Of a DNA stretch of 64,000 nucleotides, positions 33,245-49,965 are shown in pieces. The notes below the pieces were generated by a model. That model was not told the origin of the DNA, did not search any database, and was given only the letters and a program-made list of their open reading frames with translations. Within the stretch, counting starts at the first letter, position 1, and each line of letters starts with the position of its first letter. Source of the DNA: Streptomyces sp. WMMC940. Lineage in GTDB: Bacteria; Actinomycetota; Actinomycetes; Streptomycetales; Streptomycetaceae. The stretch lies in contig NZ_JAPZBC010000001.1 in assembly GCF_027460265.1 (NCBI RefSeq), forward strand, positions 3,681,001 through 3,745,000, read 5' to 3'. The translations under genes were made by a program, and so were the position numbers.

Positions 33245-33904
33245 CTACAGCCCGGCGTCCCGCGCCAGCAGTGCGGCCTGCACCCGGTTCTCGCAGTCGA
33301 GCTTGGCCAGGATCCGGCTCACATAGGTCTTCACCGTCGCCTCGCTCATGTGCAGCCGGCGCCCGGCGTCCGCGTTGGACAGGCCTTCCCCGAGCAGCGC
33401 GAGCACCTCGCGCTCACGGGCGCTCAGCGCCGCGACCCTGGCCCTGGCCTCCTCGTCACGCGTCGCCGCCCGCCCCGAGGCCAACTGCTCCACGACATGG
33501 CGCGTAGCGGCCGGCGAGAGATAGGCGTCGCCGGCCGCCGCCGCCCGCACCGCGCGAATCAGCTCTGCCGGAGCGGTGTCCTTGAGCAGGAATCCCGCAC
33601 CGCCGTGCTCCAGCGCCCGTAGTACGTTGCCGCGCTCACCGAAGGTCGTGAGCACGATGACGCGTGCCGTGGGAACAGCGCGGCGCAGTTCGGGCAGCGC
33701 GGTGAGCCCGTCCATCACCGGCATCTGGATGTCCAGCAGCACCACGTCCGCCCGGTGCGACCGCGCCAGCTCGACGGCCTCACGACCGTTGGCCCCCTCG
33801 GCGACGACCTCGATCTCCTGATCGGAGGTGAGGATCATCCGGATCCCGGCCCGGATCAGCGGCTCGTCGTCGGCGATCACGACCCGGATCGGCGAACCGG
33901 TCAC
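33245..33904 (-). CDS. NarL/LuxR-type response regulator
   Basis: A 219-residue response regulator. The receiver domain has the acidic pocket in VVIADDEPLIRAG, the phospho-acceptor Asp58 in VVLLDIQMPVMDG, and the switch Lys in GFLLKDT. The C-terminal LuxR helix-turn-helix is LSAREREVLALLGEGLSNAD followed by LHMSEATVKTYVSRILAKL. It follows the histidine-kinase gene by 39 nt on the same strand, so the two are a cognate pair. Its regulon cannot be inferred. Confidence 0.93.
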   Translation of the reverse strand: MTGSPIRVVIADDEPLIRAGIRMILTSDQEIEVVAEGANGREAVELARSHRADVVLLDIQMPVMDGLTALPELRRAVPTARVIVLTTFGERGNVLRALEHGGAGFLLKDTAPAELIRAVRAAAAGDAYLSPAATRHVVEQLASGRAATRDEEARARVAALSAREREVLALLGEGLSNADAGRRLHMSEATVKTYVSRILAKLDCENRVQAALLARDAGL

Positions 33905-33943
33905 GGACCCCCCTCTGCTCCCCCAGCACCTGGGCGCCTACGC

Positions 33944-35656
33944 CTAGTGCTTGACCTCGTACGACTTCTTCTCGACCAGCTTGCCGTCCTTGAAGCAGAA
34001 CCGGAACACCGGCTCCGCGTCCAGACTCTCCCCGATCTCGGAGGACATCAGCACCAGGCACCGCGAACCCTCCGGCTCCGTCGGCCCCTTGCCGTCCAGT
34101 CCCTCGGTGGCGATCGTGTCCCCGCTCGGCAACTGGTCCCGTACCGTCTTCTCGGCCGTTCCGACCTTGATCGCCTGGTATTCGGAGGGCTCGATCATGC
34201 CCTTCTCGAGGGAGCCGACCAGGAAGAACACCCCCACGAGCACGGCGACCCCCAGCAGCATCACGACACCCAGCGCGATACCGCACCCCATGGCCACCCC
34301 GCTGGACCTGCTGTGCCCGTCCCTGCCGCCCATCGTCCACTCACTCTCCGAAACGGTCCTGTCCATGACGGGAACACCGTCCCCGTAAGGGGTCTTCGCC
34401 GGCTGCCGCCGAAGGTCGTCCGTCGAGTCGACGAACGGCGACGCCTCCCCGATGCCGTACGGAAGGACCCCGGCCACTCGGAAACCGCCGTCGGGGACCG
34501 GACCCGCGTGGACCATTCCGCCCACCAGCCGGGCGCGCTCGTGCAGTCCCGTCAGTCCCTGCCCGCCGCTGACGACGTGGCCGATCGTGTTCGAGGCCGT
34601 TCCGTTGACGATCTCGACGACGAACGAGTCCGGTTCGTAGCGCAGGTCCACCGTGATCGGCGCACCGGGCGCGTGCTTGTAGGCGTTGGTGAGGGCCTCC
34701 TGGACGATGCGGTACGCCGCGTGGTCGGCGGCCGCCGCCAGCGGCCTGGCCTCCCCCGAGTACTTCAGCTCCACCGCGTTCCCCGCGGCCCTGGCCGCGT
34801 CGACGAGCGCCGCGACGCCTGCCGTGCCGCGGGCGGCCCGGCCCGACTCGTCCACGGACGCGGGCGCGGGCGCCTCCACCCCGTCCCTGAGGATCCCGAC
34901 GACCTCGCGCAACTCGTGCATGGCGGTCACCGAGGCCTCCCGCAGCACCCCGACCACCTCGCGCTGCCGCGGCGTGAGTTCGCGGTCGACCTCGAGGGCC
35001 CCCGTGTGCACGGAGATGAGCGCAAGCCGGTGACCGAGGCTGTCGTGCATGTCCTGAGCGATGCGCTGCCGCTCCCTCAGCCGCGCCTGGCCGGCGACCA
35101 TGGCGCGCTCGCGCAACAGCTGGTTGTTGCGCTCCTGCAGGGTGTGCAGAAGGGTCCGCCGCTGTGTCCAGTACCGGCTGGCCAGGCCGGGGACGACCGC
35201 GACCGCGAGGAAGTAGAGGGTGGTGAGCAGCACCAGCGTCAACGCGGTCGAGGGCGACCAGGTGTCGATCAGCGAGACGGTGACACAGAGTGCATAGGCG
35301 CCGGCGAACGCCGCCACGGCCCGGCCCGCCCCGGTGATCCGGCGCCCGGCCGACCACCCCGCGGCCATCATCAGCGGAAGGAACCCGTTGCCCACCGGCG
35401 TCAGCGCGGCGGTCACCGCCAGCACGGTCGCCGGCAGTCTCCGCCGCATCAGCGACAGGCCCGCGATCGCGACGGCCTCGGCCAGCACGGCCGCGACGGA
35501 CGCCCCCAGCACCTGTCCCAGACCCACCGCCAGAAGGGCGAGCAGCAGCGCGACGGTCGCCTCACCCGCGAGTCTGCGCCGGGACCACAGCTCCGGCGGC
35601 GCCAGCCATCTGCCGCCCGCCCGCACCCCGGCCCATATCTTCGATGACGCGTCCAC
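33944..35656 (-). CDS. Sensor histidine kinase with extra C-terminal membrane domain
   Basis: A 570-residue HisKA_3 kinase. Residues 28-160 hold several membrane helices. The phospho-acceptor His204 lies in RQRIAQDMHDSLGHRLALIS, and the HATPase part has DHAAYRIVQEALTNAYKHAP and the G-box SGGQGLTGLHERARL. Instead of ending near residue 405, the protein continues in the same frame. A linker of about 45 residues is followed by a further membrane helix (residues 455-481, CGIALGVVMLLGVAVLVGVF) and about 90 residues with two Cys that should lie outside the cell. This tail begins SEYQAIKVGTAEKTVRDQLP, a BamE/SmpA-like pattern. The start is GTG at 35656. It pairs with the downstream response regulator. 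Confidence 0.88.
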   Translation of the reverse strand: MDASSKIWAGVRAGGRWLAPPELWSRRRLAGEATVALLLALLAVGLGQVLGASVAAVLAEAVAIAGLSLMRRRLPATVLAVTAALTPVGNGFLPLMMAAGWSAGRRITGAGRAVAAFAGAYALCVTVSLIDTWSPSTALTLVLLTTLYFLAVAVVPGLASRYWTQRRTLLHTLQERNNQLLRERAMVAGQARLRERQRIAQDMHDSLGHRLALISVHTGALEVDRELTPRQREVVGVLREASVTAMHELREVVGILRDGVEAPAPASVDESGRAARGTAGVAALVDAARAAGNAVELKYSGEARPLAAAADHAAYRIVQEALTNAYKHAPGAPITVDLRYEPDSFVVEIVNGTASNTIGHVVSGGQGLTGLHERARLVGGMVHAGPVPDGGFRVAGVLPYGIGEASPFVDSTDDLRRQPAKTPYGDGVPVMDRTVSESEWTMGGRDGHSRSSGVAMGCGIALGVVMLLGVAVLVGVFFLVGSLEKGMIEPSEYQAIKVGTAEKTVRDQLPSGDTIATEGLDGKGPTEPEGSRCLVLMSSEIGESLDAEPVFRFCFKDGKLVEKKSYEVKH

Positions 35657-36027
35657 GACCGCACCCTAGGCAACCGTCTCGCCCCGTCACTGCCCACTTT
35701 CGTCGCACGCCCGTCCGACGAAGGTTGCGAGGCCCGCTCGAACCGGGGAGACAAAGCGCATATGAAAAGGATCTACCGGACGGTCGGAGTCCAATGAGGG
35801 CCGGCTCCGGGGGAACTCAGCCAGAAACGGGCCCCAGCAGGACTTTCGTCTCTGGTGAGAACCCGTTCCGTCGGTTTCTCACCGTGGGGCACCGACGGAA
35901 TGCGCTGGTCAGCGGTGACGCAGAGGCTCCGAAGATCGTTTCCCGCGCTCGGGATGATCGTTTCCCACCGTGCAGGTAGCCCCCACGTTGTCTCCCGCAG
36001 GCGGAGGACCTCCAAGACGGCTGGCGG
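35657..36027. other. Intergenic region with hairpin and phased direct repeats
   Basis: I see no gene here. The region holds a perfect 10-bp inverted repeat TTCCGTCGGT (35866-35875) and ACCGACGGAA (35891-35900), plausibly the terminator of the leftward peptidase gene. It also holds two direct copies of GATCGTTTCCC (35934-35944, 35956-35966) exactly 22 bp apart, which could be a regulator site. The kinase promoter must lie in the lower half. Confidence 0.5.
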
Positions 36028-37607
36028 TCAGAAGCGGCTGACCATCCCCGGGACGCCCGGCGGTGTCGGGAGCGGCAGCCGGTTGGGGGTGTGGCGTTCG
36101 TCCGCGGCCGGAGCGGCCTTGCAGGTGACGTCCTTCGCGGGGAGCTTGCCGGTGGTCAGGTAGGTGGTGGCCGTCTTGTCGGCGCACGACTTGGTGCCGT
36201 AGATGCCGTGTCCGACGCCTCCGGCGACCGTGACCATCTTGGAGCCCTTCATGGCGCGGCGCAGGCCCTGGCCACTGGTCAGCTGCGTCTGGGAATCCCA
36301 CTCGTTCTGGAGGATCAGCGCGCGTACCGTGTTGCCGATCCGGGTGGCAGGCTCGCTGCCGTTCTTCTTCCAGAAGGCGCACGGCTTGATGTGCGAGGCG
36401 AAGTCGCCGTACAGCGGGTACCTGGCCTTGTCCCGGATCGCGTCCTTGCGGTACTGCTCGGGGTCGCGCGGCCAGGCGCGGGTGTCGGCGCAGACGACGG
36501 CCCAGAAGCCGGCGTCGCCGTTGTCCTCGGGCACGGTCCGGCCGAAGGACGGCGGAACGGGCTCGGGCGTCTTGAGTTCCCGGTCGGCGGACTGGGGAGT
36601 TCCGGCGGCGGCCTTCTTCAGCTCGGCGACCGCTTCGGCGGCGTCGCGCGTGCCGAAGAACATGCCCCGGAAGCCTCCGCGGATGTCGTCGCCGGTCAGC
36701 AGCGTGCGTCAAGGTCGAAAGGCTTGCGGTCGGCCTGGGCGACCAGGCCGTAGAAGGTCCCCCGGACCGCCTCGGGAGTCCGGCCCAGCTTGTAAGTGGA
36801 GTGCCGTGCGGCGGTCCATTCGGTCCATCGGGTGAAGGCGGGCTCGGCGCCCTCCGCCCAGACCTGGATCATCCCGCGCCAGATACGGGCCGGGTCGACG
36901 GCGCTGTCCAGTACGAAGCGGTCGGCGCGTATCGGGAACATCTGCGTGTACACGGCGCCGAGGTAGGTGCCGTAGGAGTAGCCGAGATAGGAGATCTTCT
37001 TCTCGCCGAGCACGGCGCGGATGACGTCCATGTCCCGGGCGGTGTTGCGAGTGGTGATGTGGCGCAGCTTGTCGCCCTGCTTCTTGTCGCACTTCTCCGC
37101 GACGGTCCGGGCCCACTTCACGTCCTTGGTGAACGTCTCGGCTTTGTACGGCCGTTCCCAGTTCCGCTCGTCGGGCGTCAGGCCACAGCCGACGGGGGAG
37201 CTTTGGCCGATGCCCCGCGGGTCGAAGCCGACGAGGTCGTACTTGTTCTTCACGGATTTCGGCAGCTCGCCGGCCATGTACTGAGGCATGTCGACACCCG
37301 GCCCGCCCGGACCACCCGGGTTGAGCAGCAGCACACCGCGCCGTTCGTTCTTGGTGCTCGTCTTCGTCCTCAAAATCGCCAGGTCGAGCTTCTTGCCGCC
37401 AGGTCTGCCGTAGTCGAGCGGCACCTTGATGGTGGCGCACTGAAGGGAGGCGGGCAGCTCCTTGTCGCAGCGGTGCCAAGCCGGTTTCTGCTGGAGGTAA
37501 GGGCGCAGGGAGTTCTCGGCGGCGGACGCGGTGCCGGGGGTCAGCACGGGGACCAGCGGGGTGACGGCGCCGACCGCCAGGAAGAGGGCTATTCGGCTGT
37601 TGCGCAC
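36028..37607 (-). pseudogene. Secreted tripeptidyl aminopeptidase (alpha/beta hydrolase), frameshifted
   Basis: This is a Streptomyces secreted serine peptidase of the SlpD/TAP type, read in two frames. The first (37607-36696) has a signal peptide ending TPGTASAA, the oxyanion region LLLNPGGPGGPGVD and nucleophile Ser211 in GYSYGT, then stops after FDLDARC. The rest (TGDDIRGGF onward to 36028) is in another frame. It contains the acid region ILQNEWDSQTQ, the catalytic His in GGVGHGIYG and the TAP-like C-terminal domain. Deletion of one G near 36705-36712 explains the break: restoring it gives FDLDGTLLTGDD. As read, the product lacks Asp and His of the triad and would be inactive. A sequencing error would produce the same picture. 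Confidence 0.8.
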
Positions 37608-38077
37608 GCGCGTTGGGTCCTTGTGTCGATGCGTACGGGACGCACCCACCCTGCCGTGCGCGTTGTGCGGATTGATCCCTCCACAGGTCAGTGCTTCTCC
37701 CACCGTGGACGTACGGGGAGTTGGGGCGGATAGTGCTGGAGTCGGACAACCAGGCTCGGCTCTTTGCCATCTATCTCAAGTGGCGTTCTGAAAATAAAGT
37801 TGAGTCGTGTACAATCTCGATTGATCCGCGTTTCAGGAATTTCTTGGCTTCCTTGCGGTGCCAGTTGCGATTCCACCGGCGTCTTCACCAAGAGGCCTAC
37901 TTCGAGCGGGTCGTTCCGGTCGGTAGTCGTGATCCTTTTCACGCGTCTTCTCTTATGCCGGACCTCCCTCGGGATGTCAGAGTCTCGTCCGTGGTCACCT
38001 CCACGCCCTGGAGGTGAGGACCACGGAACCGTCTCCCTGACCTGGAGACGAATGAACGACTACTGGGGAATCCCAAC
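37608..38077. other. Intergenic leader region with A/T-rich stretch and tandem hairpins
   Basis: There is no supported gene in these 470 bp. The stretch 37780-37860 is clearly lower in GC than the surroundings and includes a possible -10 TACAAT (37810-37815). Two hairpins precede the next gene: one with arms GTGGT...ACCTCCA and TGGAGGT...ACCAC (37991-38024) and CGTCTCC/GGAGACG (38030-38036 with 38044-38050). Both would lie in the 5' leader of the secreted-protein gene. Confidence 0.5.
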
Positions 38078-38584
38078 ATGCGTAATACCCCCACGCGCCG
38101 CGTCTCTCTGGCCGGAATAGCCGCCGTCACCAGTGCCGCCCTGCTCGCCACCGCGGCTCCCAGCGCCACCGCCGCCGACGACAGCCGGGCAACGGCTCGT
38201 ACCGTGGCTGCCTCCTCCGCGACGCAGGCTCCTGAACTGACGTCCGAGCAGCGCCAGTTCATCGAGCAGGAGATGGGCCCGGAGGCGCTGGCCGAGATGG
38301 AGAGGGCCATGAGCCGGAACGGGGGCTTCGCCTTCCCGATCGCCGCGGCGGCCATCGGTGCCGCGGCGTGGTGCGCGAAGGGCGCGCTGGCCAGCATCCC
38401 CACCTCGGTGCTCAGCGACATCGCGGCAGGCAAGGCCTCAAGCAAGAAGACCTACGTCAGGAACGCCGTCATCGGCTGCCTCGGAGGCGAGATCGGGGGC
38501 GTCGTCTGGAAGTTCCTGCCGGGCTGGGTCAAGAACAAGGCCATCAACATGACGATCGCCTTCATCATCAAGTACATCCGCTGA
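38078..38584 (+). CDS. Secreted hydrophobic bacteriocin-like protein
   Basis: I recognise no named family. The ATG at 38078 follows GGGGAA. The 168-residue product has a clear signal peptide (RRVSLAGIAAVTSAALLATA, cleavage near ATA-ADD at residue 33), then a polar pro-like segment (34-80), then a hydrophobic, glycine-rich and cationic C-terminal part (84-168). That part contains FPIAAAAIGAAAWCAKGA, CLGGEIGGVVWKFLPGW and a tail AFIIKYIR. Two Cys (99 and 134) could form a disulfide. GxxxG-like repeats and Lys/Arg-rich ends resemble pore-forming peptides. A small membrane protein follows 34 nt downstream, as an immunity gene would. The bacteriocin idea is inference. Confidence 0.6.
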   Translation: MRNTPTRRVSLAGIAAVTSAALLATAAPSATAADDSRATARTVAASSATQAPELTSEQRQFIEQEMGPEALAEMERAMSRNGGFAFPIAAAAIGAAAWCAKGALASIPTSVLSDIAAGKASSKKTYVRNAVIGCLGGEIGGVVWKFLPGWVKNKAINMTIAFIIKYIR

Positions 38585-38618
38585 CGCCGCTCGGCACCGC
38601 GACAACCCCGGGGCATCC

Positions 38619-38984
38619 ATGGCCTACATCTTCATCTTCGGTTGCTTCCTCGTGCTGGGCCTGGCCGCTTCGCTGGCCGCACGCACCGGGTACCGGGGCA
38701 AGGTCTGTGACCGGTCCGACGGGTACGAGGTCCCCGCGGAGGTCAAGTCCGACCCCGGCCTGAGGAAACGGGCGAATGACCTGGTGGCATTCTGGTGCAC
38801 CGGGGCCGCGGTGCTCAGCTTCGCCCCGCTGGTGCCGATCGGCACGGTCATCATGAGCGGCGGTGGCCGAACGGTCGGAACCTGGGGACTTGTAGTCCTC
38901 GCCGTCTACGGCCTGGCCGTGGTGACGGTGGGCGCCTACCCCTTCGAGAAGATCAAGAGCCTGGGGCGGTCCACCGAACGGTGA
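38619..38984 (+). CDS. Small three-helix membrane protein, possible immunity protein
   Basis: A 121-residue protein with three predicted membrane helices: residues 1-22 (MAYIFIFGCFLVLGLAASLA), 54-77 (LVAFWCTGAAVLSFAPLVPI) and 86-108 (GTWGLVVLAVYGLAVVTVG). A polar loop with charged residues follows the first helix and a basic tail ends the protein. I recognise no family. It starts 34 nt after the secreted protein gene and is probably co-transcribed with it. Small polytopic proteins encoded right after secreted pore-forming peptides are often immunity proteins, but no direct evidence is present. Confidence 0.6.
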   Translation: MAYIFIFGCFLVLGLAASLAARTGYRGKVCDRSDGYEVPAEVKSDPGLRKRANDLVAFWCTGAAVLSFAPLVPIGTVIMSGGGRTVGTWGLVVLAVYGLAVVTVGAYPFEKIKSLGRSTER

Positions 38985-39643
38985 ACAGAGCAAGGGCTGC
39001 TGCGTCGTGCGGCCGGCGGGAGCGACTGTCGCCCTGAGCACCAGACCGGGACCGACTGCCCTGCCCCGTGGCGAAGACCGTGTTGGTGGCCGTGTATGCC
39101 GCCAGGGAGCTCGGCCACGACGTCGTGAGTGCCTGACGCTGTCGGGGATCTTGGAAGTTGAGCGTGATCGACGTACTGCTGAAGCGGTCCATTTTCCCTT
39201 ATCAGAGCGACGCCAGTAGGTCGGCTAGACTCCGAGAGGCTGTAGCGGTGGGTCGGTGACCGTTGGGCGAACGCTTCGGGCTCGGCTCCCAGTGGCTGTG
39301 ATCCCGCGGCGATGTCGCCGCCAGTGGTGAAGGCGGTGGCTGCGGCGTCGATCACCGTGATTTCTGCGGCCAGCCAGCACGGGCCCAGCAGGGCGCTGAC
39401 GACACGGGCCGCGTTGCCCCAGGGTGAGGTGGTGCTCTTTTGGCCCTTGCGGAAAGCAAGAGCGGTCTGCTGACATCCTCGTGCGGTTCGAGTCCGCGCA
39501 AGCAGGTGTTGACGACGAGCGTCTTGCCGAAGCCTGCACCGCCGTGGATACAAATCATCGCTCGGGCGGCAACAGTGTCGATGATGTTCTCCCGCGCATG
39601 AGCAGGGCGCGCGTGGTGACCACGGACGCGTCTAAATATCCTG
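38985..39643. pseudogene. Non-coding region with a degenerate P-loop ATPase relic
   Basis: No intact gene is present. On the minus strand, 39558 downward reads ICIHGGAGFGKTLVVNTCLR then GLEPHEDV, a good Walker A with flanks like those of transposon-borne ATPases (TniB/IstB-like). The frame then degrades, and a second frame (ARVVSALLGPCWLAAEITVI) continues without further motifs. The rest down to 38985 shows nothing recognisable. The relic marks a boundary of foreign DNA next to the lanthipeptide cluster. Confidence 0.4.
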
Positions 39644-41545
39644 TTATCGATCCTGCGTTAGGGTTAGCAGTTCAGCAAAGAGACCATTAGCGCTAACGAG
39701 GGAGTTGTAGTCGCCCTGCTCGACGATGCGGCCGTCCTCCATGCAGATGATACGGTCGGCGATCTTGGTGTTCTCCAAACGGTGCGTCACCACGATGGTG
39801 ATGCAGCCGTTGGAGTGAGCCTTGATTTTTTCGAAGATGCTGTGCTCTCCTCGCGGGTCCATGTTGGAGGTGGGTTCATCCAGAACGAGGAGCGCAGGCT
39901 TGCGGTAGAGCGCTCGCGAGCAAGCCAGGCGTTGCCACTGGCCGCCGGAGAGCTCCACTCCGCCGTAGACCTCGCGGGCGAGGAGCGTATCGAGGGCGTT
40001 AGGGAGCTGCTCGACCACCTCACGCATACCGACGGCGTCGATCGCTTCCCACACGCATGCATCGCCGGAGGTGCGAGGTTGACCGAGAGTTACGTTCTCG
40101 CGGACCGTCAGCGGCCACTGTGCGAAGAGCTGGGGCACCAGGCCTGTGTTCCGCCATACGCTCGAGGGGTCGGCGAGAGCTAGGTCAGTGCCGTTCCAAG
40201 TAACGCGCCCCTCGCCAGCCAGATGAATTCCAGCGATTAGACGGGTCAGCGTCGACTTGCCGGACCCATTCGTTCCGACGATCGCGAGGATCTCACCCCG
40301 GCGCAGGGTCAGTGACACTCGGTCGACGGCTGGTGCGCTCCTGCCTGGGTACTGGTAGGACACGTTCTCCAGCCCGATTTTCTCCAGTGGCACAGAGACG
40401 TTTAGCTCGCCCCGTCGGGAGGCATGCTGCTCGGCAATGTCCAAAAACGTTTGCATGTCGTTCAAATACAGGCTCGTATGGAATACAGCCGCTCCATTAG
40501 TCACGATCTGAGACAGAGCGGCCAGGATCGTCTGTACAGCGACGACTGCCGTGGCGGCGATTGCCGGCGCCACGCGCCCGGTCACCGCCAGCCAGCCGAG
40601 CACGGTCCAGGTGGCTATGAGGAGGAGGCCGCCGACTGCCGAGGCCACCAGACCAATGCGCAGCGTGCGGGGAGCAGCGGTGATGGTGCGATGGTCAACC
40701 CGCTCGGACAGTGACCGATGCCAGAACAGCAGGTAGTCGGCCATATTGTTGGCACGCACTTCATCGGCGAAATTCGAACTCGTCGCCCACCAGCGCATCA
40801 TGCCGCGCACATTTCGATCTGCCACATTCGCATAGTGGATCTCGTAGTCCACCCGAGCGGACCGTACGGCCCCTATGCCGGCCGGGAGCACCGCGAGAAC
40901 CAGCAGCGGGAGCATCAGCGGATGCAGCACTGATAGCACCCCGCTGGCCGTGACCAGACGAATCAGAGCAGTCATGAATCGCTGGGCGTCGTTGATCATG
41001 GCATGAGTGCGCGTCACGCCCATCTCGGCCGCTTCCTGCCGGTCCGCAAAGCCGTCGACCGCATATGCGTCGGCCTCAACACGGCAGATTGCCTCTACCA
41101 AGGCGGCATCCGCTTCAGTCACGAGCCTAGGGGTGATGCGACGCTCACCGTACATCGCCAGGGCGCCGGCGAGTCGGGCGAGAGCGGCGGCAGCCGCAAC
41201 GATCAGCAGAGCGGGCACCGCGTTCCGCAGCCGCTCCTCGACCGGGCCGGAACCGAGGAGAGGCTGCATAACATCGGCCGTGGCGGACAGCAGGACTCCA
41301 GCGGCTACGCCGGTCGCTAGCTGGCAAGCTAGCAACAGCAGTACGCCCCACGGATCAATCCGCCAGGCCATCCGCGCAATGCTCCGCATTACAGAGGGAA
41401 GTTTCGAGCATAGGTGCTTGAATGACACCTGTTCGAGAGGGTTCCTGAGGTGTTCACTGCTGTACTTGATTTCGGCTGGGGGCGGCGGGGGAAGCGATTC
41501 AGGATAGGTTGTGACTGGCGTTGCGGCCTCGGCGTTGACAGGCAT
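39644..41545 (-). CDS. Lanthipeptide-type ABC exporter (fused TM and ATPase)
   Basis: The 633-residue half-transporter is the last gene of the lanthipeptide cluster. It has a cytoplasmic N-terminus of about 60 residues with no C39 peptidase Cys/His, then membrane helices between about residues 67 and 345. The ATPase carries Walker A GTNGSGKS (424-431), signature LSGGQWQR (532-539), Walker B LLVLDEPTS (552-560) and VVTHRLENT. It should work as a homodimer exporting the modified peptide. The leader would have to be removed by another protease, because no LanP or C39 domain is encoded here. The ATG at 41545 follows CAGGAG with about 7 nt spacing. Confidence 0.88.
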   Translation of the reverse strand: MPVNAEAATPVTTYPESLPPPPPAEIKYSSEHLRNPLEQVSFKHLCSKLPSVMRSIARMAWRIDPWGVLLLLACQLATGVAAGVLLSATADVMQPLLGSGPVEERLRNAVPALLIVAAAAALARLAGALAMYGERRITPRLVTEADAALVEAICRVEADAYAVDGFADRQEAAEMGVTRTHAMINDAQRFMTALIRLVTASGVLSVLHPLMLPLLVLAVLPAGIGAVRSARVDYEIHYANVADRNVRGMMRWWATSSNFADEVRANNMADYLLFWHRSLSERVDHRTITAAPRTLRIGLVASAVGGLLLIATWTVLGWLAVTGRVAPAIAATAVVAVQTILAALSQIVTNGAAVFHTSLYLNDMQTFLDIAEQHASRRGELNVSVPLEKIGLENVSYQYPGRSAPAVDRVSLTLRRGEILAIVGTNGSGKSTLTRLIAGIHLAGEGRVTWNGTDLALADPSSVWRNTGLVPQLFAQWPLTVRENVTLGQPRTSGDACVWEAIDAVGMREVVEQLPNALDTLLAREVYGGVELSGGQWQRLACSRALYRKPALLVLDEPTSNMDPRGEHSIFEKIKAHSNGCITIVVTHRLENTKIADRIICMEDGRIVEQGDYNSLVSANGLFAELLTLTQDR

Positions 41546-41864
41546 CAAGTGGGCTCCTGAAATGGGTTGACTGCGTAGGCTTACGTGTGAAAATGGGCTA
41601 GGGATTGTCGTACGCGGTGTACTTTCCTCGCTCGTCAGCAAGCCAATACGTCTGCAGCGGCAAACAACTGTAAGCACAAGCCATCTTTTCTGGGCCGCCC
41701 ACTCGAGTACCCAACTCGCCATTCACACCGGACGGCGACTTGACGATGCACACCGCTCACCATTGATAGGAAACTCTTCGGTTTCCTCCTTTTAGGCCGC
41801 TGACCTGCAGTGTCGCGCGCTAATGGCAGGAACCGCAAGAGTTTTCCATCAATAGGTGCTGCCG
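41546..41864. other. Intergenic region within the lanthipeptide cluster
   Basis: No clear gene is seen between the SpaB_C-like pseudogene and the exporter. A hairpin (41768-41787) lies in it. A possible 42-codon leftward frame (41763-41635), starting MVSGVHRQVAV and containing three Cys, has an AAAGGAGG sequence too far upstream (about 22 nt) to be convincing. Confidence 0.4.
41768..41787. terminator. Small hairpin downstream of the SpaB_C-like gene
   Basis: AGGAAAC (41768-41774) and GTTTCCT (41781-41787) form a perfect 7-bp stem with loop TCTTCG. It lies about 78 nt after the pseudogene stop and about 220 nt before the exporter start. It may end or attenuate the upstream transcript. Confidence 0.4.
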
Positions 41865-42819
41865 CTAGTTCCTTGCAAGTCGGGAGCGATCGGCTAGGGC
41901 TTCGGTGATGAGTATTTGCCGGGCGAACTCCAAACCAGCGCGGTTCCAGTGGTAGACGGTGAGGAACGCCGCGGCTTCGCAGGGGGCCGATGAGAGCGTG
42001 CTCGGCGTGGAAGTAGTCAGGAATCCACTGCCCGCACACCTCGCCGACGGATTGGGCAAAGTCGGCGAGGAGTTGACGTGTAGGGATATCGAGCAGCGAC
42101 TCGAGGCGGTCGGGGTGCGACCAGAGCGCCGCTATCTTGGTAGCGGAGGTGGTGAAGGCGTCCGACGGAGGGCTTGCGAGGCGGCGGTTTGCGGAACGAC
42201 GGCAGTGCTCCCATACTTCCAGGTCCTCCCAGCCGGTGATGCCCATGGCTTCGAAGAGGGCGTGAAGCATGTTGAGGGAGACAATCCACGGTGAGGTGGA
42301 AGATGTGCTGCTGGCATGGTGGCGCAGCCAGGCGATTGAGTCGGCGGTGAAGAGGCGATGCACGCCGGTCATGGCGCTCTTACCGCCGAAGAGGTGGGTC
42401 TCGGGTTCGTAGACGGCGAAATGCCATGCGTCGATTAAGGCGTCGTGCTGTAGGCGCGCCATGTCCCTGCGGAGACGTTCGGTTAGCTGGCGGATTCCTG
42501 CCGGTCCGGCGTGAAATCGTATGCGCAGGCCGGGGGGCTTGGACATAAAGAAGAAGTCCTGAAACAGGTCATTATCCAAGCCGTTAGTGACTAGGTCCAG
42601 CAGCCGTGTCGGCAACTGGCCAGGTCGTGTTGCACCCCCGATGGTCAGGCGGCATTCAACCCATTCGCGCGCTGTGGGTTGCGGCCAACCCTCTATGCTG
42701 AGTGCGGTACCCCCCTCCCGACAGACGTCCATGGCTGGCTGGATGGATTGCGAAACTGGGTCGAGAGCGTCAGCCCAGTGCCGCAGTGTCTGCGCAATTG
42801 CTGAACGAGCGGGTTTCAT
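41865..42819 (-). pseudogene. Stand-alone SpaB_C-like (thiopeptide-type) biosynthesis protein, frameshifted
   Basis: The leftward gene begins MKPARSAIAQTLRHWADALD at 42819 after AGGA. It encodes a SpaB_C-type domain: WVECRLTIGG, FFFMSKPPGLRIRFHAGPAG, and YEPETHLFGGKSAMTGVHRL, where the YEPE-x-FGG pattern is diagnostic. This domain in split LanBs catalyses glutamate elimination. Near the end the frame breaks: after FHAEHALIGP the expected CEAAAFLTVYHWNRAGLEFA (ending RSRLARN at 41865) lies one frame over. A run of five G (41982-41986 on the plus strand) is the probable indel site. Uncorrected, the ORF runs on to 41635 with an unrelated tail. The LanB here already has its own SpaB_C domain, so this copy may be accessory. 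Confidence 0.75.
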
Positions 42820-42836
42820 CGGGCGTCCTGTTGGAT

Positions 42837-44117
42837 TCAGTTGACCAAGAGTGCGGTGTCCCACGCGACTGCTTGCGCACGGCCAGCATAGGCGTCAAGG
42901 GCAAGGGCTAGACCGGCGGCGCCTTCCAAATATCCGGCGACATCTACGTGAGGGCCGTCGGGGTGGGTAACGCGGAAGGTAGGGATGTTGTCTGCGAAGC
43001 GGGAAATGATGCGTTGCGCTACCTGATCACGAGCTTTGCTTACCTGGACGCCGATACGGCTCTTCTCAAAGAACGACAACAGGTGTAAAACGCCGGCTTC
43101 GCCATGGCAGATCGACCAGTGCTCGGTCTGCCATCGCGGAGGCGGGGTGTCGAGCATGCCAGCGATCGCGTTCTCGGCGGACGCATGCAAGTGGGTGCTG
43201 TCGAGTGCGGTAGCGGCCAGTTGTAGCGCGCGCGCAATTCCGGGAGTTCCATAGCACCATGCGCTTCGACCGCGGCGTCCTGTGGAGGCTCGTCCTTGCC
43301 ATTGTGCGAGGCTGATGTATGGAGGCCAGTGTTGGCCGTATTCGTCCTTGGCCGACTGCGACAGCAGGAGTTCGGCGAGTTCCTCGATGGCCGCGCGCTG
43401 CCCTTCCACCTCACAGCCCTCGATGACGGCCAGGGCCATCAAAGCTAGAGGCCCGGCGATGCCGTGGGCCAGGCCGAGGTTGAGATGGCCGGCACTCCAG
43501 TCCTGGTCGGGCGGCGCAAACTGCGATGTCGGGGGGGTTGATGACCAGAAGCCGGGAACACGGCTGTTGTTGCGGTAAGGGCGTAGGGCAGTCATCACTA
43601 CTAGGGCGTCCAAGACCGCCTCTAGATCGGTGCGGCGTTGGCGCAACAAAAGGTAACGACCGATACCGGCAATGCCAGAGATAGTGTCGAAACGCATAAC
43701 AGAGCCGATCGGGTCGGCGTGGAGCGTTGCGGTCACAGCGCATACGCGCCGACTGATCATCGCGTCTAGGGTTGTGAGGGCACTCGCGTAGTCACCAGTT
43801 GCGCGGCAGGTTAACTCCAGGGCGAAGCCGAGACCTTCGAGAGGGCCGTAGATCCCGGACTGGCGCAGTTCCTGTCGGGACAGCCCCTCCCTGGCCCGTT
43901 GGAGGAAGCGGTGAGCTGTCGTGATTGCGGTGGGATCCACAAGACTTCGGGCCAGATGCAGCAACGCGATGCCGCTTTGCCCCCGCCCAAGCGAGACCAG
44001 CGTGCCCGGCAAGGTTGACGCTGATTCCAGGCCTTTCGTCATGTCATTCGGGTCGGTCAACCTGGCCGTAATTTCATCGGCTAGGGCTGCGGCCACGGCT
44101 GCATGCTCGGCGCTCAT
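42837..44117 (-). CDS. lanC: Lanthionine synthetase C-like cyclase (LanC)
   Basis: A 426-residue class I lanthipeptide cyclase. The alpha-toroid repeats include GIAGIGRYLLL and GLAHGIAGPLAL. The zinc site is complete: Cys288 in AWCYGTPG and Cys337-His338 in SICHGEAGVLHLL. LanC adds Cys thiols to dehydrated Ser/Thr to form (methyl)lanthionine rings. The start at 44117 overlaps the lanB stop by 4 nt. Codon use is less GC-rich than in the flanking housekeeping genes, as in the whole cluster. It is followed after 17 nt by the SpaB_C-like gene. Confidence 0.92.
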   Translation of the reverse strand: MSAEHAAVAAALADEITARLTDPNDMTKGLESASTLPGTLVSLGRGQSGIALLHLARSLVDPTAITTAHRFLQRAREGLSRQELRQSGIYGPLEGLGFALELTCRATGDYASALTTLDAMISRRVCAVTATLHADPIGSVMRFDTISGIAGIGRYLLLRQRRTDLEAVLDALVVMTALRPYRNNSRVPGFWSSTPPTSQFAPPDQDWSAGHLNLGLAHGIAGPLALMALAVIEGCEVEGQRAAIEELAELLLSQSAKDEYGQHWPPYISLAQWQGRASTGRRGRSAWCYGTPGIARALQLAATALDSTHLHASAENAIAGMLDTPPPRWQTEHWSICHGEAGVLHLLSFFEKSRIGVQVSKARDQVAQRIISRFADNIPTFRVTHPDGPHVDVAGYLEGAAGLALALDAYAGRAQAVAWDTALLVN

Positions 44118-47100
44118 CCTCGGTCTACCTGAACGTGAGGCCGGCGGCCCAGGGACCGGGAGACGTGGCTCAGCAGCATGAGACTGGATTCCTCGGCGGC
44201 CGTGTCTATACCGAACAGCCGATTGTGCTGCATGTGCAACAAACTTTGCAGCGAGTACGCAGCGGCGCTGCCGTCGGCCGGACCGGTTCCTGTCGCGCCA
44301 AACGCCTTCCCCAGGCGGCGACCTTCGGACGAGGACTGCCACGCGTCCAGGAAGGACCCGTCACCGTAGGCGTCCTCAAGGAACGCGACGGGAGAGGATG
44401 CGGTGAAGATCTGATGAGTCAGGTCGATCTCGTGACGCTCCAACCGTCCGTCATTGCGCAGGCGAAGCGCCCGATGAGACCACTGCCGCCAGTCCCACTC
44501 GCCGAGCGCGTCCAACAACAACGCGTAGTTTGCTACGCACAACACGCTACGCGAGAGGCGGCTACGCGCGGCTGCGCGAGACGGGCGCAATTGTTCCACC
44601 GCCATCCGGCTATCGAGATGGAACAGATCCTCTGCGAACGACATGACCTCGAGGCTGCCGCCATAGCGGTCCACTTCCGGCTCGTAGGGAAGAATCCGGA
44701 ATCCGCTGCACAACCCATCATCCTGCCAGGAGTCCAAGGCCCGCAGCAGACGCGGCCACACCGTTTCGGTGACAGAGTCCGAGTGTCCCTGGATCCGCAG
44801 CCTTAGGTGATCGTCTGGTACCTGGTAGCGGACGAAATGCCAACGGCGCGCCTGGTCACCTAGGTCGCCCAGGAACGGCGAGATCCGGTCGACCAGGAGG
44901 TCGTTTTGTATTGCGGCATCCACAGCGATTTGGACGTAGGCCCAACTACCACCCGGCAAGCGGCGCGGTCGGTGGGCGGTGCGCTGCCAGCGGCGTCCCG
45001 GAGCGGTGGCGGGTGTGTGGCTGTCCGCGACGTGTGCCCTGAAGGGCATGACCAGTTCTGTCGCTCTACCCTGGGCCCACCCGAAGGCGTCACCACCGGC
45101 CAGGACGTGCGGGCTTTCGGTGATGATTAGTTGAGATCTCGCGGCGACATCACGACGCAACATCTCCGACTGGAAACGGTTGTCGAGATTGATCTCGTAA
45201 CCGAGGTCCCGATAGCGGACCATGACACGCTCGTGTACGCCGAATTCCTCGCGCCACTCCCCCAAAGCCGCGTGCCACGTCCCTGCGTCCGTACTCTCGG
45301 CTGCCCTCCGTAGTTCGCTGCTGATTGCCCAAGTTAGTGGGGAGAGAACTGTACGTCCCATCCTGACACGTGGTAGCACCGGAATGTGCCTGAATTCGGC
45401 CCAGTCCCACGGTCCCCAGGACTTGTGCTTGTCGGTGAAGCGCAGGTCTGTCAACAGACGTGCCACGTCAGGCGCGTGGGTGGCCAGAGTGACGTTACTC
45501 AACATCAATGGCAAGACCTCGCGCGAGCCATCGGGAAGGTAACAGCGCAGCCGCTTGCCATCATCGGCGATCAACAACTCCGGCCATTCCAAAGCTTCCG
45601 TGGCATCCGACTCGGCGTATATCCCGACCGGGATGTGCGCCGGGGTGATTATCGCTGTCGACATAACATTGCGGACCCGGCGCTTGGCGGGAAGAAAAGT
45701 CACCTGGGCGGGCAGTGCCTGTGGGTGCGCATCCTGGATTCCTCGCAGGATGTCGTCGGCATGGGCACCGAGGTGATGGGTGAAGCGACCAGTCGTGGCA
45801 CCGGCTAGGTGGGTGCCGGCGGTCGGTGACGGGACGAGGAGATACTCACCGCGATCGATGGCGTGCACGTCCTTCGCGAGCAATTGCACGAACGCCTCGA
45901 TAGTGTCGAAGGCAGGGTGATCCTTCTCGGTACGCAAGGCGTCCAGTTCCGTCCCGGTCAGGTGGACCTCGCGTGTGGGGGCTGTGAGGCCGCGGTGGAC
46001 CAAGGCGGCCAGCGCATCGGCCCGCCCGCGGTGTGCTTCCGCTCCGCCCTCATGCCCCCAGTGCTGCCCGGCCGCATTCCGTTCGCGGTAGGAAATGGGG
46101 AAGCCTAATCCTCGAGCGGAGTCAACGAGGTCGCCCAATCGCACCGCGCCGAAGGCTCCGTACTTCTCCAAGAACGCTTGGCGGTACGCGCGAAGCGGCG
46201 CGTACCGTCCCGCCGGAGCGATTGCCCACAAAACGTTCACGTATCGCTCCACCTCCCGTAGTACGGAATGCGGCAGCGTGACGTGAGCATCGGAGCAGAG
46301 GTCGATGTGGAGGTTGGACTGTGCCTGGCCTGGCGAATGGGTTCCGCCCGTCAAGGCCGTCCAGGCTTCGAGACCGCCTCCTACCGGCTTTCGTTCATAA
46401 GCGTCACTGAGCGTCAAGACGGCCTTCAGGTCGCACAGGGGTGACGACGGGGACGTGCTCGCCGTCGAGTGGTTCGTCCAGGTCTTCTCGACGCGGCTGG
46501 CGAGGTCGTCTAGAAGGACTTCTTGCTCCAGCAGTCCGGACAGGTACCGATCGACTGCATCTTCGGTACTTTGCGGCATCATCTGCTGAAGTCGGGCGCA
46601 CAGATCGGCGTAGCCGATAGGAGTGCGCGCGGCTTCCAGGGTCGCGCGTAGCACACCCGTCAACTTGATCTTGGTCTGTCGGCCACCCGCCGATTCTCCC
46701 GCCTGGGCTCGGACGTAGGGCAACAAGAGACGATCGCCCCGCACCTGAGCTAGGTTGTTCGCAACCACGCGCAGCCCGTCCCGAGCCTGCCGATCACCCC
46801 GCCATCGACGCACGAGGTCATCCAACCATTCCCCATCCGGCCTGATGCCCTTGCGTGCCACACCTGTCGTATAGAAAGCGGCCGTCCGCTCAAACTTTGC
46901 CCGTCCCACACCAGCGTGCAGGCCAAAGGGCGTTGCCCGTCCCGTGATACGCAAGGCGTACCGGGTCACCGACTGAGCTAGCTTGAGTAGGCGGCGGTAG
47001 CTGAGTTGGTGCCCGGCAGCAACCCCCTGTAGCGCCTGCGCGAGCGACGTGCTGGAGACCGCGACGGCTTCGAGGAGAACCGGATCACCAGCCAGTTCGC

Positions 47101-47287
47101 GTACGTATTTCTCCAACACTGTCCTCGCAGGCCGCGCCTCAGCCGCCAACTGGTCCACGATCCGCCGGAATCGTGTATCGGGGAGAGTCGAGGACCTAAA
47201 CGTGCAGATTCCAAATGGGATGTAATCCGGTGTCAAGGGTTTTCCCAATAGCGGTTTCGAAGCATCGGCGATGACCGTGCAGGCCAT
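44114..47287 (-). CDS. lanB: Lantibiotic dehydratase LanB
   Basis: A dehydratase of about 1057 residues that uses glutamyl-tRNA to dehydrate Ser/Thr of the precursor. The N-terminal glutamylation domain is recognisable from YIPFGICTFRSSTLPDTRFR and the Arg-rich TRYALRITGRATPFGLHAGV, through the central dehydratase segments. The C-terminal SpaB_C elimination domain spans about residues 780-1040 (GSWAYVQIAVDAAIQNDLLV, RWHFVRYQVPDDHLRLRI, YEPEVDRYGG). Length matches full single-chain LanBs. The start is uncertain: the ATG at 47287 and a TTG at 47293 both fall inside a perfect hairpin. TTG 47236, with GGGA upstream, is an alternative. Confidence 0.9.
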   Translation of the reverse strand: MACTVIADASKPLLGKPLTPDYIPFGICTFRSSTLPDTRFRRIVDQLAAEARPARTVLEKYVRELAGDPVLLEAVAVSSTSLAQALQGVAAGHQLSYRRLLKLAQSVTRYALRITGRATPFGLHAGVGRAKFERTAAFYTTGVARKGIRPDGEWLDDLVRRWRGDRQARDGLRVVANNLAQVRGDRLLLPYVRAQAGESAGGRQTKIKLTGVLRATLEAARTPIGYADLCARLQQMMPQSTEDAVDRYLSGLLEQEVLLDDLASRVEKTWTNHSTASTSPSSPLCDLKAVLTLSDAYERKPVGGGLEAWTALTGGTHSPGQAQSNLHIDLCSDAHVTLPHSVLREVERYVNVLWAIAPAGRYAPLRAYRQAFLEKYGAFGAVRLGDLVDSARGLGFPISYRERNAAGQHWGHEGGAEAHRGRADALAALVHRGLTAPTREVHLTGTELDALRTEKDHPAFDTIEAFVQLLAKDVHAIDRGEYLLVPSPTAGTHLAGATTGRFTHHLGAHADDILRGIQDAHPQALPAQVTFLPAKRRVRNVMSTAIITPAHIPVGIYAESDATEALEWPELLIADDGKRLRCYLPDGSREVLPLMLSNVTLATHAPDVARLLTDLRFTDKHKSWGPWDWAEFRHIPVLPRVRMGRTVLSPLTWAISSELRRAAESTDAGTWHAALGEWREEFGVHERVMVRYRDLGYEINLDNRFQSEMLRRDVAARSQLIITESPHVLAGGDAFGWAQGRATELVMPFRAHVADSHTPATAPGRRWQRTAHRPRRLPGGSWAYVQIAVDAAIQNDLLVDRISPFLGDLGDQARRWHFVRYQVPDDHLRLRIQGHSDSVTETVWPRLLRALDSWQDDGLCSGFRILPYEPEVDRYGGSLEVMSFAEDLFHLDSRMAVEQLRPSRAAARSRLSRSVLCVANYALLLDALGEWDWRQWSHRALRLRNDGRLERHEIDLTHQIFTASSPVAFLEDAYGDGSFLDAWQSSSEGRRLGKAFGATGTGPADGSAAAYSLQSLLHMQHNRLFGIDTAAEESSLMLLSHVSRSLGRRPHVQVDRG

Positions 47288-47311
47288 GCCCAAAGGGGCA
47301 TGGCCTGCACG
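47276..47311. terminator. Perfect hairpin between lanA and lanB (attenuator)
   Basis: A perfect 16-bp stem (47276-47291 with 47296-47311) has loop AAAG. It begins 17 nt after the lanA stop in the direction of transcription and covers the first possible lanB start codons. Such stem-loops between precursor and modification genes lower read-through so that the peptide is made in excess. There is no T-tract after it. Confidence 0.75.
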
Positions 47312-47328
47312 ACAAGACGGTCAACTTT

Positions 47329-47514
47329 TCAGCAACACGGCGGGTTACATCCCCCGGTTGCCGCCAACGACGTGTATCCGTCGGATTCGCATGTCCAGTG
47401 CGTTACGGCCATGTCGGGTGACGACGAAGTCGCAACAACGACCTCTTCAATCTCCAGCTCCAGCTCCGTGAGATCGAAGTCCATGATCGGGGTCGTTGGC
47501 GTGGCAGTACTCAC
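47329..47514 (-). CDS. lanA: Class I lanthipeptide precursor peptide LanA
   Basis: A 61-residue precursor. The GTG start follows CAGGGAG with good spacing. The leader is acidic (MDFDLTELELEIEEVVVATS, residues 11-30) with an FDL motif like the FxLD box recognised by LanB. By analogy with the microbisporicin/planosporicin leaders, which end before V-T-S-W or I-T-S, cleavage is expected after PDMA (residue 36). The core would be residues 37-61, starting VTHWTCESDGYTSL and ending GGCNPPCC. It has Cys at 42, 56, 60 and 61 and six Ser/Thr (38, 41, 44, 48, 49, 53). Up to four rings are possible, with the C-terminal CC pair of that family. The middle (ESDGYTSLAAT) is unlike the known members I recall. 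Confidence 0.85.
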   Translation of the reverse strand: MSTATPTTPIMDFDLTELELEIEEVVVATSSSPDMAVTHWTCESDGYTSLAATGGCNPPCC

Positions 47515-47577
47515 ATTGACTCCCTGAGATTTAATGCTCGAATGATGCCGGATCGGTCGGTCGAGTGATCTCGAAGG

Positions 47578-47607
47578 AGGCTAGGTTGATATTTGATCAA
47601 GCGTCAA
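47578..47607 (-). promoter_or_regulatory. Candidate lanA promoter
   Basis: On the minus strand TTGACG (47607-47602) and TAGCCT (47583-47578) are 18 bp apart, about 65-95 nt before the lanA start. They lie in an A/T-rich stretch that also holds the palindrome TTGATCAA. This is a reasonable vegetative-type promoter for the lan operon; no regulator gene is linked. Confidence 0.45.
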
Positions 47608-47855
47608 TAAGATTCCTCAACAGTGGCCGATTTTCGACCGGGTCTATCAGAGTGCGGAACGTGAGTTCTTGTCCGTTTCGTGCTTGAGGTTAACCTCGAA
47701 GTTTCGTGACGGGCCGCCGACGGAGTCGGTGGTCCGTTTCCGTGCTGTGGGTTGAGTCTGTGCAGGCTGAGGGGCCGAGTGTCGTCTCGGGGTGGCGCCG
47801 GGTTCCACTGCTCCGGGTGGTGAGGGGCTGTCGTAGGGGCGGGTGGATCCGCTGG

Positions 47856-49231
47856 TCAGCCGGGGTTCGGCAGGAGTGCGAGCCGTTTGAGGGCTGCGGT
47901 GATGTGGGCGGTGAAGGGCCAGTGCTGGGCGAGGCGGAGGATCCGCCGGCGGCCGGTGGTGACGAGCTGTCCGGCCGTGGTGAACAGGCGGAGCCGCAGG
48001 CGGCGGGGCTCCCAGAGCCGGGCCTTGCCGGTCAGCGCAAGCATGGGCATCCAGGCCAGCAGGTCGAGGGCGATCTGGACGATCTCGAGCCAGACTTTGT
48101 TCTGGGCTGTGGTGTGGAGGGGCAGGTTGCGCAGGCCGGTGGCCCGGGCGGCCCGGATCCTGTCCTCGGCCCGGGCCCGCAGCCGGTGACGGCGCTCGAG
48201 CTCGGCGATCGGCCGGTCAGCAGTGTTGGTGGCGAAGCAGGTGATCCGCATGCCGTCCGCGTCCGTGATCCTCAACTGGGCGCCAGGGTGGGGCCGTTCC
48301 TTTCGAACGATCAGCCGCATTCCCTTGGGCCAGCCGTCCAGTAGCTTGCCCGTGAGCTCGGCGACCAGGCCCCGTCACGGACCTCACCACTGGTCTCCAC
48401 GGCCGGTGTCCAGGCCGATGCGGGGACCTTCAGCACGTGTTCGTGGATCGCCTCGGTCACCGTCATGCCGACCGAGTAGGACAGCCATCGTCCGCGTTTC
48501 GCGAGCCAGGACACGAAGTCGTGGGTGCCGCCCGCGGAGTCCGTGCGGACAAGCGTCTGCCGCCCGCGCCGGTACTTCTTCGGCATCTGGGCCAGGGCCG
48601 GCTGGGCGGTGGTGATGTGGTCAGCGGCCGTGTTCGAGCCGGCGTTCCCCGGCCTGAGGAGGGCGGCGACCGGTTCGCCGGTTCCGCCCGGTCCGTGGTC
48701 GACGAAGGCCGTCAGCGGATGGTGGCCGTAGCTCTTCTTCCAGGTCGCGGCCGCGTCCTCCTTGTCGGAGTGCGCGATCACCAGGACACCGTCGAGGTCG
48801 ACCGTGACCTGTCCGTCGGCGTCCGGGGCGTCCTTGCCCGCCAAGGACCAGACTCGGTCACGGACTTCGGAGCGTGCGGACCGGACGGCCCGCAAAGCCT
48901 TCTCGCCGGAGGCGGCGAGGGCGTCGATCAGACGGGAGACGGTCGGATCGGAGGCAACCGGGCCGAAGACGGCCGGCTCGCACCGCAGCACGGCGATGTC
49001 CGCGAGGCAGTCCCCGCCCAGTGCGACCGCCAGGGCGACGTCCAGCAGGACCTTGCCCGGGTGGTGGACGGCCCGCGGCTTGCGCCACGGCGCCAGCGCC
49101 TTCGATATCGCCTGATCCAGACCGGTCTTGCGGACCGTCTCCAGCAACAGGACCGAGCCGGCCTGCGAGACCACCTGGCGGCCATCCCCCTGGACACGGA
49201 CACGCGGGTACGACGCGGTAGGCTCTCTCAC
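47856..49231 (-). pseudogene. IS1380-type transposase, frameshifted
   Basis: The 5' part (49231 to about 48370) encodes VVSQAGSVLLLETVRKTGLD, the first catalytic region TVDLDGVLVIAHSDKEDAAA and LVRTDSAGGTHDFVSWLAKR with acidic residues of a DDE transposase. The frame is lost after SGEVRDGAW. The rest (LVAELTGKLLDGWPKGMRLI to 47856) continues one frame over with the usual IS1380 C-terminus ending KRLALLPNPG. A one-base deletion near 48370-48380 explains it. A split this late removes the last catalytic acidic region, so the element cannot move by itself. Confidence 0.85.
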
Positions 49232-49234
49232 CTG

Positions 49235-49305
49235 GAAAGTGCTCTTTTCCTTGCAGCCAACGGGACCCTCAGCAAGTCCTATCGTTGCAGGTCAAGAGCA
49301 CTTTC
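49235..49305. repeat. Long-range inverted repeat at the transposase start
   Basis: GAAAGTGCTCTT (49235-49246) and AAGAGCACTTTC (49294-49305) are perfect 12-bp arms with a 47-nt loop, placed just upstream of the transposase start inside the element. Such a structure can shield the transposase start from read-through transcripts. Confidence 0.6.
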
Positions 49306-49357
49306 TGCGTTTCTGATCAGCCACTGGACAGGCCACCTCGTGAAAGCGCGAGGTTAA

Positions 49358-49965
49358 GGAAGGACCGCTGGTCGCGAGTGGGAGGTCGTCCTCAGTCGTC
49401 GTGCGGGCGAACAGGCCGGGTTCGGTTTCGCCGAGGACGCCTCGGCTGACCCCCGTTTCAGTTTGGGATGTCCGGCCGCCAGACCAGCACCAGCGGGCTG
49501 CAGGAAGACCGCACCGACACCGTCGGCGTCGGCGGCGAGCACGGAGGCCGCACCTTCGGTGTCGGCGGAGGACTGTACCGGCCGGTGAGCGTTATGGCAG
49601 GAATCCGAGGTCGCTAGGAAACGTGCGCTGCACGCGCGGCAACCGCTTCGGCAGCGAGCCTGTGGTCTGCGAGAATCGCACAGGATTTCTCGAGCCCCCA
49701 CGCGCGGCCGAGCACCTGCCAGGAAGCCCGAACCCTCTTTACCCCAGCGCACTGGGCCCAGCCCCCAGCCCGCCTGGAAGATCGCCTCCTAGATCCTGGA
49801 CCGCGAGACTCCAAACGAATTGCGCCTCCGCAACACCACAAAGCAGACCGACCATCTCCGGGTCATAGACAAGCGTCTCGGGCCAGCGTGGACGCAACCT
49901 GCCCCCTGCTGACACGCTGTCGACCGGTGTGCGATGCTCCCGATCACAAGGGAAGGGGTGTGGCG
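49358..49965. other. Intergenic region, no supported gene
   Basis: In these 608 bp between the insertion sequence and the DUF4129 operon, reading frames up to about 150 codons exist on both strands but none shows a recognisable domain, start signal or natural codon use. The stretch is probably the debris of an earlier gene interrupted by insertion. The last 40 bp hold the GGAAGGGG ribosome site of the next gene. Confidence 0.5.

What the first reader, a model, noticed from the sequence alone, without database searches (positions are those of the whole stretch)
39644..47514. Compact class I lanthipeptide cluster with an unusual core peptide
A precursor (47514-47329), full LanB, LanC, a second SpaB_C-like protein and one exporter form a leftward cluster in lower-GC DNA. 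The predicted 25-residue core begins V-T-x-W-T-x, as in microbisporicin/planosporicin (V/I-T-S-W/V-S), and ends in CC. It carries only four Cys and has ESDGYTSLAATGG in the middle, which I do not recall from any named lantibiotic. There is no leader protease, no LanFEG immunity set, no decarboxylase or halogenase, and no regulator, so maturation must rely on host functions.
Basis: partly seen in the sequence, partly recalled or inferred. Interest (0 to 1): 0.82.

Follow-up and report, generated by a model that had tools for sequence, protein, structure and literature searches.

The report
Lanthipeptide cluster with two opposing lyases
A soil bacterium carries a small gene set for making a ring-shaped peptide of a family with no curated name that I found, and its extra enzyme looks like the rare kind that flips the geometry of the rings, although in this strain that enzyme's gene appears broken near its end.

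Summary
In detail: a minus-strand operon (47514-39644) encodes a 61-aa precursor (A), full LanB (B), LanC (C), a stand-alone SpaB_C protein (V, my letter) and an ABC exporter (T) in lower-GC DNA. It is a class I lanthipeptide cluster. All six have A-B-C-V and a core plan P...T-x-x-(T/S)-C...TS...CC. None of seven family precursors reaches an NCBIfam cut-off. V carries the published signature of syn-glutamyl lyases (SptBb, CoiSA): Lys for NisB Tyr, Leu for Arg826; LanB's own lyase domain looks anti-type. Best reading: two lyases of opposite stereochemistry act on one glutamylated precursor, giving mixed methyllanthionine stereochemistry. In this strain the conserved C-terminus of V lies in another frame: a broken gene or a sequence error. 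The architecture is known in kind; the peptide family looks undescribed. No activity was tested.

The parts
47329..47514 (-). precursor peptide gene (lanA), 61 aa; leader MDFDLTELELEIEE..., core ...VTHWTCESDGYTSLAATGGCNPPCC
47272..47314 (-). strong RNA hairpin between lanA and lanB, candidate attenuator setting the precursor-to-enzyme ratio (inferred)
   Evidence: -42.7 kcal/mol, z -6.0, 0 of 200 shuffles as good
44114..47236 (-). lanB: full dehydratase, glutamylation domain plus glutamyl lyase domain with the Tyr, Arg826 and His961 equivalents of NisB (anti-type)
   Evidence: start
42837..44117 (-). lanC: cyclase; WCYG, CHG and LAHG motifs align with those of NisC
41865..42819 (-). V (letter given here): stand-alone SpaB_C protein with syn-glutamyl-lyase signature; the reading frame changes near 41976-41988 and the conserved C-terminus, 41975-41865, lies in another frame
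39644..41545 (-). ABC exporter; ATPase domain clear, no C39 peptidase domain and no PF00664 match reported
47690..49357 (.). IS element (DDE_Tnp_1_4 transposase in two ORFs) directly upstream of lanA; ends are a candidate inverted repeat; neighbour, not part of the operon

Best explanation
It is a class I lanthipeptide operon, probably acquired by transfer, of a family that seems undescribed. LanB binds the leader and glutamylates Ser/Thr of the core from Glu-tRNA. Two lyases then remove glutamate: the C-terminal domain of LanB (anti, giving Z-Dhb and Dha) and the stand-alone V protein (SptBb/CoiSA type, syn, giving E-Dhb). LanC adds Cys to form a small N-terminal ring, T38 to C42, and C-terminal rings using T48/S49/T53 with C56/C60/C61. 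The ABC protein exports the peptide and a host protease cleaves it, probably after PD (core MAVTHW...) or later. Shown: genes, order, conservation, residue signatures, LanB clade. Inferred: chemistry, ring pairing, cleavage site, transfer, biological use. In the window strain V may be inactive, because its conserved C-terminal part is out of frame.
Against: No chemistry tested. The window V is frame-broken, so the two-lyase scheme may not run in this strain; V of L107 is split too. The window V is only 34-40% identical to the family V proteins, and the five family V proteins in the tree are not a strictly supported clade (SH-aLRT 92, database protein P0053 inside; L133 V not in that tree). Profile alignment of V with LanB does not reach the C-terminal His region. 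The exporter is not conserved in L021, where a methyltransferase gene follows V. Nothing here shows antibacterial activity.
Confidence: 0.72

Rival explanations
1. A microbisporicin/planosporicin-type lantibiotic with a drifted core.
For: Both begin V-T-x-W/V, have TS and a Cys seven residues after that Ser, and end in CC (precursors); MibB is the best PDB match to LanB (307 bits).
Against: LanB outside the NAI-107-like clade (7 of 7 such loci used form their own clade); no CTPGC; no match of the window precursor to TIGR03731 at E 0.1, which the NAI-like precursor of L075 matches above cut-off; no stand-alone SpaB_C hit in the stretch held for 7 of 7 NAI-like loci.
Confidence: 0.05
2. V is not a lyase here but does another SpaB_C-type reaction, such as a pyridine-synthase-like cycloaddition, or is a scaffold.
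For: Walker et al. 2020 (PMC7268733, passages) raised this for stand-alone elimination proteins; pyridine synthases share the fold.
Against: Lys/Leu signature and two conserved Arg of the later-characterised syn-lyases; model closer to lyase domains than to pyridine synthases; no azole partners in the operon.
Confidence: 0.12
3. A decaying operon: V, the adjacent transposase and perhaps a TAP-like hydrolase nearby are split, so the island is degrading and may make no finished product.
For: Frame break in V; transposase in two ORFs, and two adjacent ORFs matching two parts of a hydrolase.
Against: LanA, LanB, LanC and exporter are open; a 99% identical full-length LanB exists on another contig (P0007); sequencing error not excluded.
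Confidence: 0.2

Closest known systems
coi cluster of Streptomyces coelicolor (CoiA/B/C/SA)
   Same: full LanB with anti-lyase plus a second syn-lyase and LanC (PMC9486935, passages)
   Different: there the syn-lyase is fused to a methyltransferase, here it stands alone; the window precursor has no match to the FxLD model
SapT / spt cluster
   Same: V has the same active-site signature as SptBb; loci L017-L019, which look like such clusters, hold its homologues
   Different: SapT uses a split LanB; here LanB is full length
SCO0268-like group and embleporicin
   Same: neighbouring LanB clade; acidic DLDL-type leader; TS and a CC ending (PMC11672506 section 2.1)
   Different: no separate SpaB_C protein seen in the 11 loci so labelled (10 by precursor look, L031 by its LanB); window precursor has no match to TIGR04451. 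The label is loose: L023 and L026 match TIGR04451 below its cut-off
microbisporicin (NAI-107) / planosporicin
   Same: class I, actinobacterial, CC ending, Thr near the N-terminus
   Different: different LanB clade, no CTPGC ring motif; LanD and FEG genes (recalled for NAI-107) not in this operon
FxLD-type lanthipeptide loci
   Same: LanB-LanC plus a second SpaB_C protein in six loci
   Different: precursor model TIGR04363 (matched by L088, L092, L096; others by look); SpaB_C copies form their own group

Membership tests
class I lanthipeptide cluster | LanB with glutamylation and elimination domains plus LanC plus a precursor with acidic leader and Cys/Ser/Thr core | tested here: met
class I lanthipeptide cluster | product contains (methyl)lanthionine | not testable with these tools
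   needs expression and MS
syn-glutamyl lyase (SptBb/CoiSA type) | Lys replaces NisB Tyr, Leu instead of Arg at the Arg826 place, two substrate Arg kept | tested here: met
syn-glutamyl lyase (SptBb/CoiSA type) | complete conserved C-terminal part in frame (window copy) | tested here: not met
   the conserved end is in another frame; in frame in L021, L106, L108, L133
syn-glutamyl lyase (SptBb/CoiSA type) | makes E-Dhb / d-allo-l-MeLan | not testable with these tools
   needs reconstitution
microbisporicin/planosporicin | LanB in the NAI-107-like clade | tested here: not met
   (MibB and PspB themselves were not in the trees; 7 and 4 loci with NAI-like precursors stood for them)
microbisporicin/planosporicin | CTPGC ring motif / match to TIGR03731 | tested here: not met
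SCO0268 family | precursor matches TIGR04451 | tested here: not met
   no match at E 0.1 for the window or any of six further family precursors
FxLD family | precursor matches TIGR04363 | tested here: not met
FDLD family (NF038155) | precursor matches the leader-region domain model | tested here: not met
   none for the window; one relative (L104) 17.2 bits, cut-off 20
split-LanB (SapT type) cluster | glutamylation and elimination domains only on separate proteins | tested here: not met
   LanB holds both
thiopeptide | azole-forming YcaO/dehydrogenase partners in the cluster | tested here: inconclusive
   none among the 5 operon genes and 13 flanking ORFs scanned; not every ORF was scanned

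The most novel reading that the evidence does not exclude
A previously undescribed family of class I lanthipeptides in which two lyases of opposite stereochemistry share one glutamylation domain and choose Thr by Thr, giving peptides with both Z- and E-derived methyllanthionine; the frame break in this strain is a natural lyase knock-out that yields a different or stalled product.
Probability: 0.3. Interest if true: 0.65.

Novelty: new member of a known kind. Interest (0 to 1): 0.5.

Why it matters
It offers a compact operon, with relatives whose V gene is open in four other clusters, on which the rule 'which lyase acts on which Thr' can be tested without the fused methyltransferase of the coi cluster. 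None of the seven family precursors reaches the cut-off of an NCBIfam model and none matches Pfam, so tools that rely on such models may leave the product unnamed.

Tried and rejected
The PDB sequence search with P0004 gave only chance endoglucanase hits; structure comparison with an intact relative worked. Plasmids: 3 records share pieces with the operon, none covers most of it, the two Streptomyces ones are ABC-gene matches at 72-73% identity; LanB relatives on 104 plasmid records are all below 60% identity. Weak precursor hits: the phylum hit L105 reads as a non-precursor protein (I had looked at one strand only; both strands). Of the weaker matches I opened two genomes (G1312, G1120 as L134, L135); both hold thiopeptide-looking precursors; the remaining weak ones were not opened. 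The first control for the V tail was flawed because random windows fell inside V itself; it was redone outside the operon. Profile-profile alignment of V with LanB stops before the C-terminal region, so I do not claim that the His of FHWNR is the catalytic base. A text search for the core ending listed only unrelated texts (10 of 14 papers listed). MibV of the microbisporicin cluster, which I recall as SpaB_C-like, appeared in none of the 10 papers listed and is not used as evidence. Two flank genes searched in 21 genomes each did not settle where the island begins and ends.

Full report
Observation. The minus strand of 47514-39644 holds a 61-aa precursor, a LanB with Lant_dehydr_N and Lant_dehydr_C, a LanC, a second Lant_dehydr_C protein (called V here) and an ABC protein. 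Inferred starts are 47236, 44117, 42819 or 42732, and 41545. GC is 0.625 against 0.706 for the window outside 36001-49400; GC3 is 0.69-0.73. A strong RNA hairpin sits between lanA and lanB.

Relatives. The precursor has one hit in the protein collection, differing at the start residue (GTG read as V or M) and at one core residue, H to N, on a contig of 3,408 bases. A LanB 99% identical to the window's is on a contig of 10,719 bases; that both come from one strain is not shown. The next LanBs are 36% identical or less. A LanB-alignment scan kept 80 loci. In seven of these 80, an ORF other than LanB matched a profile of V relatives: L021 and six FxLD-looking loci, L088, L091, L092, L094, L097, L098 (ORFs of 150 aa or more, flanks up to 9 kb). 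L021 (Actinoalloteichus caeruleus) has a precursor ending TCETTGTSGTSCNLTNGCNPPCC. Precursor-alignment searches at E 0.01 matched 4 of 392 genus genomes (own and three relatives), 2 of 396 phylum genomes (own and one non-member), 6 of 394 class genomes (own; the others at 2e-5 or weaker) and 23 of 394 family genomes (own, G319 and G1280 at 5e-18 or better; the others at 1.5e-5 or weaker). The draws overlap, so these are not independent counts, and weak hits were mostly not opened. The relatives L106, L107, L108 and L133 each hold A-B-C-V and an ABC gene; in L021 a methyltransferase gene follows V instead. In L107 the V gene is split into two frames.

Core plan. In the window, the allele and the five relatives the pattern is a Pro, then T-x-x-(T/S)-C, then TS, then CC at or next to the end; Cys number in the core runs from 3 to 6 (L133 is outside the alignment and has one further Cys in its N-terminal extension). 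The V-T-x-W-T start is not conserved. [quoted passage not shown] No NCBIfam model matches the window precursor, its allele, L021, L102, L103 or L133 at E 0.1, and L104 matches the FDLD domain model below its cut-off (17.2 against 20 bits); Pfam has no match for these seven. As controls, L088, L092 and L096 match the FxLD model and L075 the gallidermin/nisin model above cut-off; L023 and L026 match the SCO0268 model below cut-off.

LanB kinship. In a tree of 48 LanBs that I picked from the loci, the five family members then known form one clade at SH-aLRT 100, inside a 17-row set at 100 with 11 SCO0268/embleporicin-like LanBs and L028; seven NAI-107/planosporicin-like LanBs form a separate clade at 100. 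In a second tree, with L133 and 13 database LanBs added and fewer other rows, 42 in all, the six are again one clade at 100, and the other five stay together at 100 when the window LanB, a long branch, is left out. Both are quick trees without bootstrap. MibB and PspB themselves were not in the trees.

Frame break. P0004 matches a family profile built without the window protein only to residue 295; its in-frame tail scores nothing, while the stretch AAAFLTVYHWNRAGL...LITEAL in another frame (41975 to the stop at 41867-41865) scores 45.5 bits; the best of 3000 control windows outside the operon scored 4.9. The 365-aa database protein P0048, whose contig has the length of the window's own, carries the same tail. 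Whether this is real or a sequencing error cannot be told here. The transposase upstream is also in two ORFs, and a TAP-like hydrolase downstream may be.

Mechanism, with basis. Glutamylation and anti-elimination by LanB and cyclisation by LanC follow from established class I biochemistry; syn-elimination by V is inferred from signature and published homologues; ring pairing, cleavage and activity are inference. In coi, the cyclase and LanB alone gave at most one dehydration (PMC9486935, passages), so a dead V here could stall the pathway.

Novelty. Walker et al. 2020 (PMC7268733, passages) and the 2022 papers already note a full LanB plus a stand-alone elimination protein, so the architecture is a known kind. 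I saw no description of this precursor family in the listings of eight lanthipeptide text searches and one search for core endings, nor in the passages read; supplementary tables could not be opened, so it may be listed there.

Noticed in passing
window 47690-49357: IS element with DDE_Tnp_1_4 transposase in two ORFs (48311-49231 and 47856-48320) and a candidate pair of inverted ends (47690-47705 and 49342-49357), about 175 bases upstream of lanA.
   Followed up: partly
window 36028-37703: Two adjacent ORFs match an Abhydrolase_1 part and a TAP-like C-terminal part; they may be one broken tripeptidyl-aminopeptidase-like gene, a type of enzyme that could trim leaders.
   Followed up: no
window 33245-35656: LuxR-type response regulator and histidine kinase about 4 kb beyond the exporter gene.
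   Followed up: no
window 56678-62797: Type I restriction-modification genes: HsdR-like 56678-59956 and HsdM-like 61175-62797.
   Followed up: no
V-type proteins, alignment A5, positions 318-321 of its first row: Syn-type lyases, said in print to lack the catalytic His in alignments, carry an HWNR motif invariant in the 26 rows of A5, inside a predicted C-terminal helix; MAFFT sets it against the NisB His961 motif, profile alignment does not reach it.
   Followed up: partly
G000:C1:596761-599100 (L002, L003): A second, distant LanB-type gene in the same genome (106 and 32 bits to PF04738).
   Followed up: no
L017-L019: Loci with a syn-type lyase, a divergent split LanB N-terminal protein and LanC; the precursor seen in L017 (...YTAGCSGVCTIVICTAIVC) looks like SapT as I recall it.
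   Followed up: partly
L133 6149-13681: The G1280 member of the family has GC3 about 0.6 next to genes near 0.9, suggesting recent transfer.
   Followed up: no
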